Positions 55,176 to 58,100 of a DNA stretch of 64,000 nucleotides are shown piece after piece (position 1 is the stretch's first letter; each line of letters begins with the position of its first letter). Source of the DNA: an uncultured eubacterium 1-6. Lineage in GTDB: Bacteria; Bacillota; Clostridia; Lachnospirales; Lachnospiraceae. Location: positions 23,687-87,686 of the forward strand of contig CAIFEZ010000016.1 in the NCBI GenBank assembly GCA_903789595.1. The letters run 5' to 3'. Made by a program: the position numbers and the translations under genes. Under the pieces are notes generated by a model. That model was not told the DNA's origin. It saw nothing but the letters and a program-made list of their open reading frames with translations, and did no database searches.

Positions 55176-58100
55176 GCATTGATCCATTCCGCCCGTATGG
55201 GAGGGGACGAAGGAAGGAGAACAATTAGCAGCATGATATACGCTTAAATCCACCCCGCCCGCATGGGCGGGGACCTTCCTCCGAAGAGTTCCTTGTTGGT
55301 GTGCTTCGGCTTAAATCCACCTCGCCCGCATGGGCGGGGACGTACGTGAACGTCGCCCAGAGATCTCCTGACGTGCTTAAATCCACCCCGCCCGCATGGG
55401 CGGGGACTGCAGACAAGGGAGAGTATCGAATATCTGATACGCTTAAATCCACCCCGCCCGCATGGGCGGGGACAAAGCCTCGCCGAAGGTCTGCAGCAGG
55501 AACAGCAGCTTAAATCCACCCCGCCCGCATGGGCGGGGACGTAGAGCTGACCGTTCCGGAAATAACCGAAGAGGCTTAAATCCACCCCGCCCGCATGGGC
55601 GGGGACATTTCGAACGCGGTCCGCCTTCTCCGTACAAAAAGCTTAAATCCACCCCGCCCGCATGGGCGGGGACTACCTGGCAAACAATGGGTGCCAGAAA
55701 TCGAATGCTTAAATCCACCCCGCCCGCATGGGCGGGGACGTCTTCGATCTGTAGTCGTTCGCGATAATGAGCTGCTTAAATCCACCCCGCCCGCATGGGC
55801 GGGGACAGGGCACAGGCATACATTCCCGCGAATTGTTTTGCTTAAATCCACCCCGCCCGCATGGGCGGGGACTCGTCGGGGAAAATGACGCTCACGCCCG
55901 GAATTTGCTTAAATCCACCCCGCCCGCATGGGCGGGGACGGTTCTGCCACAGTATCTCCAACAGAATTAATCTGCTTAAATCCACCCCGCCCGCATGGGC
56001 GGGGACCGTAACAGTCCGCTGGAACGGCGGAACCTCAAGGCTTAAATCCACCCCGCCCGCATGGGCGGGGACGGTCCGGACCCTCCACAAAATCGAGACT
56101 GGCGAGCTTAAATCCACCCCGCCCGCTTGGGCGGGGACGAGACGTTATTGCACCGTGCGAAAAAGATAACCAGGCTTAAATCCACCCCGCCCGCATGGGC
56201 GGGGACGTTTTTGCCAAGCGTTGCGCTCATCCCTATACTGCTTAAATCCACCCCGCCCGCATGGGCGGGGACCGCGGATCGCGTTCTTCATGTCGTTGAT
56301 CTTCTTCAGCTTAAATCCACCCCGCCCGCATGGGCGGGGACGTTATTCAAGAGCATTTAAGATTCGTCAATCCGGCTTAAATCCACCCCGCCCGCATGGG
56401 CGGGGACACCGCCAACGGCGATGATCGAGTGCAAAAGAAGAGCTTAAATCCACCCCGCCCGCATGGGCGGGGACCTCTGGTTTGTGGTCAGGTCTCTGAA
56501 CAAACCTATGGCTTAAATCCACCCCGCCCGCATGGGCGGGGACCACGCCGCCCGAATCTTTTCTATCTCCATTACGGTGCTTAAATCCACCCCGCCCGCA
56601 TGGGCGGGGACGAAGTTGTGACAGTTAATGTAGATCCCGAACGCGCTTAAATCCACCCCGCCCGCATGGGCGGGGACTGATACCTGCGGCTGAATATACA
56701 TCTGCTCCAAAGCTTAAATCCACCCCGCCCGCATGGGCGGGGACCGGTCTTTGTGACATCCAGAAATCCGCATGCCGTGCTTAAATCCACCCCGCCCGCA
56801 TGGGCGGGGACGGCCGCCGATGCGGAAGCAGCGGCGTTAGTTTCTGCTTAAATCCACCCCGCCCGCATGGGCGGGGACATCAGCGACCGCCTTCCGTCGG
56901 TTGGCAGAATTGCTTAAATCCACCCCGCCCGCATGGGCGGGGACTGTATACACGGTTGGATATTTCAAAATGTGTGGGGCTTAAATCCACCCCGCCCGCA
57001 TGGGCGGGGACTCCTTCGGAATCAACATATAGGCCGAGAGCGTTGCTTAAATCCACCCCGCCCGCATGGGCGGGGACAAAATGCACTCGCACACATACGG
57101 ACACGGCTACGAGCTTAAATCCACCCCGCCCGCATGGGCGGGGACTCATAGCCGACAAGCGGTCCCTCATCTGGTTCGGAGCTTAAATCCACCCCGCCCG
57201 CATGGGCGGGGACGACTAATGGTTTCAATCATTTTCTCCATGTTCCCGGCTTAAATCCACCCCGCCCGCATGGGCGGGGACCAAGGCCATGGTCGACTTC
57301 GCGACCAAGGATCCGCTTAAATCCACCCCGCCCGCATGGGCGGGGACTGCGTCATCCATATCTATAGCCTCGCCCTCCTTAGCTTAAATCCACCCCGCCC
57401 GCTGGGGCGGGGACCGCTGTCCGGTGCAGTTGGTCGGACGCCGGTCAAGCTTAAATCCACCCCGCCCGCATGGGCGGGGACTGCTCCCGCGGCGTCCTGA
57501 ATGTTGATAGCGTTCAGCTTAAATCCACCCCGCCCGCATGGGCGGGGACGAAGTTAAACTTCACAAAATCCTTCGGGATTAGGCTTAAATCCACCCCGCC
57601 CGCATGGGCGGGGACCATCAGGGCACTGAAATCTGATACGAAATAGCCCAGCTTAAATCCACCCCGCCCGCATGGGCGGGGACTATCCCCGTAAATCTTC
57701 CATGTCTTAACATCGATGCTTAAATCCACCCCGCCCGCATGGGCGGGGACGTACGTTCACTATCAGCCTGTGCATTTCTCTTGGCTTAAATCCACCCCGC
57801 CCGCATGGGCGGGGACCGGAATCAACAATGGGGACATAGCTTTTCTATCGCTTAAATCCACCCCGCCCGCATGGGCGGGGACCAGATGAGTAGATATATT
57901 GATGCAGATGCACTGGCTTAAATCCACCCCGCCCGCATGGGCGGGGACGATACCTGCGGCTGAATATACATCTGCTCCAAAGCTTAAATCCACCCCGCCC
58001 GCATGGGCGGGGACGTAGATCCCGAACGCGAAAACGTCATTGAATCAAGTGCTTAAATCCACCCCGCCCGCATGGGCGGGGACATGACGTAACTGCACAG

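What the first reader, a model, noticed from the sequence alone, without database searches (positions are those of the whole stretch)
56612..58050. Two non-adjacent spacers overlap and reveal the PAM from the array alone
Spacer 56612-56644 (GAAGTTGTGACAGTTAATGTAGATCCCGAACGC) ends with the 15 nt that begin spacer 58015-58050 (GTAGATCCCGAACGCGAAAACGTCATTGAATCAAGT). They merge into a 54-nt target, GAAGTTGTGACAGTTAATGTAGATCCCGAACGCGAAAACGTCATTGAATCAAGT, open in one frame (EVVTVNVDPERENVIESS). In minus-strand crRNA orientation the three bases 5' of the first protospacer, read from the second spacer, are TTC (ACTTGATTCAATGACGTTTTC|GCGTTCGGG...). TTC is the established type I-C PAM. This supports both the subtype and the right-to-left transcription direction.
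Basis: partly seen in the sequence, partly recalled or inferred. Interest (0 to 1): 0.75.

Follow-up and report, generated by a model that had tools for sequence, protein, structure and literature searches.

The report
Overlapping CRISPR spacers confirm TTC motif
Two spacers in a very long bacterial CRISPR array come from overlapping pieces of one phage gene, and together with 15 phage matches elsewhere they show that this ordinary type I-C immune system picks targets next to the letters TTC; the array also records taking up the same phage's DNA twice.

Summary
Spacers 56612-56644 and 58015-58050 share a 15-nt end overlap that simulations do not reach (0 of 200; longest 12), and the triplet 5' of the first protospacer in crRNA sense is TTC. 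The array is cut at the window end by an insertion sequence. Its other half (contig C36) carries 22 more spacers, the presumed leader, and cas2-cas1-cas4-cas7-cas8c-cas5c-cas3, so subtype I-C and right-to-left polarity are confirmed. No exact copy of the 54-mer was found, but independent protospacers give TTC at 15 sites: 11 of 12 in one congener's prophage, and four others. Four other foreign matches and two self-matches lack it. One correction: the phage frame is on the other strand (LDSMTFSRSGSTLTVTT), the C-terminus of a ~180-aa protein beside a phage tail lysin; EVVTVNVDPERENVIESS is antisense. One addition: the neighbouring spacers 56678 and 57949 are also one target, with identical PAM-side ends. 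Pairs 21-22 and 41-42 are therefore mirror-order captures from the same phage type, best read as two separate acquisitions. This is a known kind of system with an unusually clean record.

The parts
55176..55208 (-). degenerate terminal (oldest, trailer-end) repeat GCATTGATCCATTCCGCCCGTATGGGAGGGGAC
   Evidence: sequence
55242..63923 (-). 130 near-identical 33-nt repeats with 129 spacers of 33-36 nt; with the degenerate repeat and its spacer, the leader-distal part of one type I-C array
56612..56644 (-). spacer 21 (A), crRNA sense GCGTTCGGGATCTACATTAACTGTCACAACTTC; its TTC PAM is read from spacer 42
56678..56711 (-). spacer 22 (B), TTTGGAGCAGATGTATATTCAGCCGCAGGTATCA, same protospacer as spacer 41
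56745..56778 (-). spacer 23; its first 30 of 34 nt match phage contig L003 exactly with TTC 5', in the NlpC/P60-lysozyme gene next to the gene hit by spacers 21 and 42
57949..57981 (-). spacer 41 (B'), identical to spacer 22 over 33 nt, same PAM-side end, 1 nt shorter at the far end
58015..58050 (-). spacer 42 (A'), crRNA sense ACTTGATTCAATGACGTTTTCGCGTTCGGGATCTAC; last 15 nt are the first 15 of spacer 21
63924..63946 (-). first 23 nt of a 33-nt spacer split by an insertion sequence; the remaining 10 nt are on contig C36; GTTCAACAG (63938-63946) is the 9-bp target duplication
63947..64000 (.). end of a multicopy insertion sequence (terminal repeat CAATGTCAT); contig and window end here

Best explanation
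This is a type I-C CRISPR-Cas locus with one long array (153 spacers), originally transcribed from right to left. Spacers 21-23 were taken from one kind of phage; later spacers 41-42 were taken again from the same kind of phage. Cas4-Cas1-Cas2 chose fragments beside TTC, which fixes the PAM-side end of a spacer; the far end is set by a loose ruler. Hence B and B' start at the same base and differ by one nucleotide at the other end, while A and A' come from two PAM sites 21 nt apart on the same strand, and the overlap exposes the TTC beside A. Shown: overlap, cas operon, TTC at independent protospacers, a homologous phage target spanning the merge. Inferred: that spacer 22/41 comes from the same phage type, two separate infections, priming by the older spacers, and that the window part of the array may now be poorly transcribed because an insertion sequence lies between it and the leader.
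For: Terminal 15-nt overlap beyond simulations. Cas1c, Cas7/Csd2, Cas8c/Csd1, Cas5c, Cas4, Cas2 and the Cas3 core and HD domain models above cut-off on C36, the operon lying right of the array with cas2 nearest. C16 and C36 join through an insertion sequence with a 9-bp duplication; 14 copies in the genome show paired 9-bp duplications and this pairing is unique; joining the flanks gives a normal 33-nt spacer. TTC 5' of protospacers for X010, X011, X013-X019, X021 and X022 in a prophage of congener G008 (11 of 12; TTC background 1.45%, binomial 7e-20), plus spacers at 56745, 59755, 60154 (in G003) and 63653. The G008 region encodes terminase, major head protein, tape measure and integrase. L003 carries both the 56745 protospacer and the homologue of the 54-mer, in adjacent genes.
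Against: No exact source of the 54-mer was found in phage records, IMG/VR or the GTDB species set, so TTC at A rests on the overlap and on a diverged relative (TTC kept there, 10 of 33 mismatches). Four foreign matches lack TTC: X020 exact with GTCG; 55408 with TCC; a partial 60154 match in G008 with AGC; 61166 with GCG. The source of spacers 22 and 41 is not identified. Expression was not measured.
Confidence: 0.93

Rival explanations
1. The 15-nt match is a chance overlap of two unrelated spacers.
For: Shared words of 12-13 nt do occur by chance among 151 spacers; one purine-rich 13-mer is seen here.
Against: End-to-end overlaps of 15 were never reached in 200 simulations (longest 12); the joined peptide matches one conserved phage protein across the junction; the neighbours of both spacers are also the same target.
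Confidence: 0.01
2. Spacers 41-42 are a rearranged copy of the block 21-22 made by recombination, not a second acquisition.
For: Block duplications are common in arrays (PMC8047081), and an exact tandem duplicate exists here (60220 and 60289).
Against: The order is reversed while the spacers keep their orientation. A' holds 21 nt absent from A, and A holds 18 nt absent from A'. B and B' differ in length. Copying cannot create new phage sequence.
Confidence: 0.04
3. The array is read left to right, so the motif would be GAA on the 3' side rather than TTC on the 5' side.
For: The window alone contains no cas genes or leader; the two descriptions are equivalent as double-stranded DNA.
Against: cas1-cas2 lie at the right-hand end beyond the insertion sequence, the degenerate terminal repeat is at the left, and the newest phage burst is at the cas-proximal end.
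Confidence: 0.02

Closest known systems
Type I-C CRISPR-Cas (Bacillus halodurans, Xanthomonas oryzae systems)
   Same: Same seven-gene set with cas4, TTC on the 5' side (TTC tested in X. oryzae, PMC8406640; 5'-GAA-3' on the prespacer overhang in B. halodurans, PMC6519985)
   Different: Long array (153 spacers) split by an insertion sequence; nothing mechanistically new
Overlapping-spacer contigs with visible PAM in Sulfolobus solfataricus (PMC3468723)
   Same: Overlapping spacers assembled into target contigs reveal the PAM; PAM-side ends of near-identical spacers are homogeneous and far ends vary
   Different: There hundreds of fresh spacers in a CCN system under infection; here one natural type I-C array with two repeatedly captured targets
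I-C systems of gut Firmicutes with other PAMs (CTN Anaerobutyricum, CTT Ruminococcus, TTT Lachnoclostridium; PMC8482600)
   Same: Same subtype
   Different: This one uses the canonical TTC

Membership tests
Type I-C CRISPR-Cas | Signature Cas8c/Csd1 | tested here: met
   TIGR01863, 245 bits, cut-off 219
Type I-C CRISPR-Cas | Cas5c and Cas7/Csd2 | tested here: met
   TIGR01876 and TIGR02589 above cut-off
Type I-C CRISPR-Cas | No Cas6 (Cas5c processes the crRNA) | tested here: inconclusive
   The operon from cas3 to cas2 leaves no room for a cas6 gene; not searched genome-wide
Type I-C CRISPR-Cas | Adaptation genes cas4-cas1-cas2 beside the array | tested here: met
   TIGR00372, TIGR03640 (I-C-specific Cas1), TIGR01573 above cut-off; order
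Type I-C CRISPR-Cas | Cas3 with HD and helicase domains | tested here: met
   TIGR01596 and TIGR01587 above cut-off; no subtype-specific Cas3 model reached its cut-off
Type I-C CRISPR-Cas | PAM on the 5' side, usually TTC | tested here: met
   15 protospacers with TTC; 4 foreign matches without
Type I-C CRISPR-Cas | Interference and crRNA production from this array | not testable with these tools
   Needs RNA sequencing or phage challenge
Primed re-acquisition from one invader | Clusters of spacers from the same element at one array position | tested here: met
   12 of the 13 newest spacers hit one prophage; spacers 21, 23 and 42 fall on one phage type
Primed re-acquisition from one invader | Dependence on a pre-existing matching spacer and Cas3 | not testable with these tools
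   Needs knock-outs

The most novel reading that the evidence does not exclude
The mirror pairs 21-22 and 41-42 are a natural record of re-immunisation: the bacterium re-acquired, at the same PAM, a protospacer it already matched perfectly, showing that the first immunity did not keep the phage out and that PAM-anchored hot spots are sampled repeatedly over long times in a type I-C system.
Probability: 0.5. Interest if true: 0.4.

Novelty: new member of a known kind. Interest (0 to 1): 0.3.

Why it matters
It shows that a PAM can be read correctly from a single array before any exactly matching phage is known, checked here against independent protospacers. That is useful where subtype alone does not fix the PAM, as in gut Firmicutes. 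The same array offers a clean natural case of repeated capture from one phage type and a burst of at least 12 spacers from one prophage.

Tried and rejected
Exact and wobble searches for the 54-mer in GenBank phages, IMG/VR and GTDB gave no source. Wobble patterns for spacers 22/41 and 23 in IMG/VR gave nothing. The L003 180-aa protein has no relative in IMG/VR or GenBank phages and only weak partial matches in 301 same-family genomes. IMG/VR phages sharing the tail lysin held no usable protospacers; a peptide-level match for spacer 59954 has CTC in that relative at 8 mismatches and was not counted. The exact repeat was not found in other GTDB species, so no sister arrays could be compared. 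About a third of the spacers, concatenated, gave no match against GenBank phages; the rest were not run there, nor against plasmids. The plus-strand peptide reading was rejected because homologues are on the other strand.

Full report
Observation. The window holds 130 near-identical 33-nt repeats between 55242 and 63923, plus a degenerate last repeat at 55176-55208. The two spacers named are present exactly as described and share 15 terminal nucleotides. Across all 153 spacers of the locus the only other large overlaps are 56678 with 57949 (33 nt of 34 and 33) and an exact tandem duplicate, 60220 and 60289; everything else is 13 nt or less. In 200 simulated sets of the distinct spacers the longest end-to-end overlap was 12 nt.

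The locus. The window is the right-hand end of contig C16 and stops inside the end of an insertion sequence. The missing half is contig C36: 23 more repeats, 22 spacers, a stretch of about 160 bp where the leader should lie, then cas2, cas1, cas4, cas7, cas8c, cas5c and cas3, all on the minus strand. Type I-C-specific Cas1, Cas7, Cas8c and Cas5c models score above their cut-offs. The two contig ends carry the same 9-bp duplication, GTTCAACAG. Fourteen copies of this element in the draft genome have such paired 9-bp duplications, each pairing unique, and joining the flanks gives a normal 33-nt spacer. The newest spacers are therefore on C36, the window holds the older part, and transcription from the leader would run right to left.

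The target of the two spacers. A pattern with free third codon positions found a metagenomic phage contig, L003, 38/54 identical to the merged 54-mer without gaps. The gene there is on the strand with the crRNA sequence and ends SINLDSLTFSRSGSTLTVSSSTSACITIIG. It has 12 relatives of 47-97% identity in an alignment that includes this C-terminus. The merged spacers read LDSMTFSRSGSTLTVTT. Upstream of the gene in L003 is a protein with NlpC/P60, endolysin-like and phage tail lysozyme domains. Spacer 23 (56745), two places from spacer 21, matches that gene over its first 30 of 34 nt with TTC 5'. Thus spacers 21, 23 and 42 fall on neighbouring genes of one phage type. The 180-aa protein itself has no named family; a structural (tail) role is inferred from its position only.

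PAM. Whole-genome searches of the genus and family with all spacers found protospacers. Twelve of the 13 newest spacers, X010-X022, lie in one prophage of a congener (G008:C18, about 19-51 kb; terminase, major head protein, tape measure, helicase, polymerase, integrase). Eleven of the twelve have TTC immediately 5'; X020 has GTCG. TTC makes up 1.45% of triplets there (binomial 7e-20). Four further sites have TTC: spacers 56745 (L003), 59755 (G014), 60154 (G003, 3 mismatches) and 63653 (G225, 1 mismatch). Foreign matches without TTC are X020, 55408 (TCC), a partial 60154 match in G008 (AGC) and 61166 (GCG, 4 mismatches). Two spacers match the organism's own genome exactly, 63789 and X009, and neither has TTC, which would spare the host.

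What the overlap records. Spacers 21-22 are targets A and B; spacers 41-42 are B' and A'. Random placement would make both pairs adjacent in about 0.02% of cases. B and B' begin at the same base and differ only in far-end length, as reported for overlapping spacers in Sulfolobus, where PAM-side ends are fixed and far ends vary (PMC3468723). A and A' each contain phage sequence absent from the other. A copied block cannot do this, so two acquisitions from the same phage type are the best reading. Repeated spacer blocks are usually taken as duplications (PMC8047081). That the second round was primed by the first is likely but not shown.

Known or new. TTC is the canonical I-C PAM and was tested in Xanthomonas oryzae (PMC8406640); some gut genera have other I-C PAMs (PMC8482600). 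That paper suggests the last repeat base may come from the PAM in I-C; here the repeat beside X020 still ends in C although the protospacer has G at that place, one case against it in this system. Reading a PAM from overlapping spacers has precedent (PMC3468723). The finding is a sound, ordinary member of a known kind.

Limits. No exact source of the 54-mer or of spacer 22 was found. The PAM of spacer 42 is unseen; in L003, diverged at that place, it reads TAA. Expression was not measured.

Noticed in passing
63924-64000 and contig C36:1-69: A multicopy insertion sequence (terminal repeats CAATGTCAT/ATGACATTG, 9-bp target duplications, 14 paired copies) splits one spacer and separates the older 130 spacers from leader and cas genes. 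Its body is missing from the assembly; none of the 15 congeners searched has it. Many of its target sites share GTGAACAGTAAC.
   Followed up: partly
C36 spacers X010-X022 (L104:705-1538); targets in L093-L095: Twelve of the 13 newest spacers match one prophage of a congener, a capture burst from a single phage; X012 has no match there.
   Followed up: yes
63789-63823: Spacer identical to two places in the host's own genome (C39, C50), inside a reverse-transcriptase-like ORF; flank GGT, not TTC.
   Followed up: partly
L104:637-671: Spacer X009 matches a chromosomal hydrolase-like gene (C23) and its homologues in three other genomes; flank always GTA, not TTC. How it was acquired is unexplained.
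   Followed up: partly
60220-60255 and 60289-60324: Exact tandem duplication of one spacer-repeat unit.
   Followed up: no
L104:1373-1405: Spacer X020 matches the prophage exactly but with GTCG 5'; its repeat still ends in C, so that C was not copied from the protospacer flank.
   Followed up: partly
12706-12816: TPP riboswitch on the plus strand.
   Followed up: no
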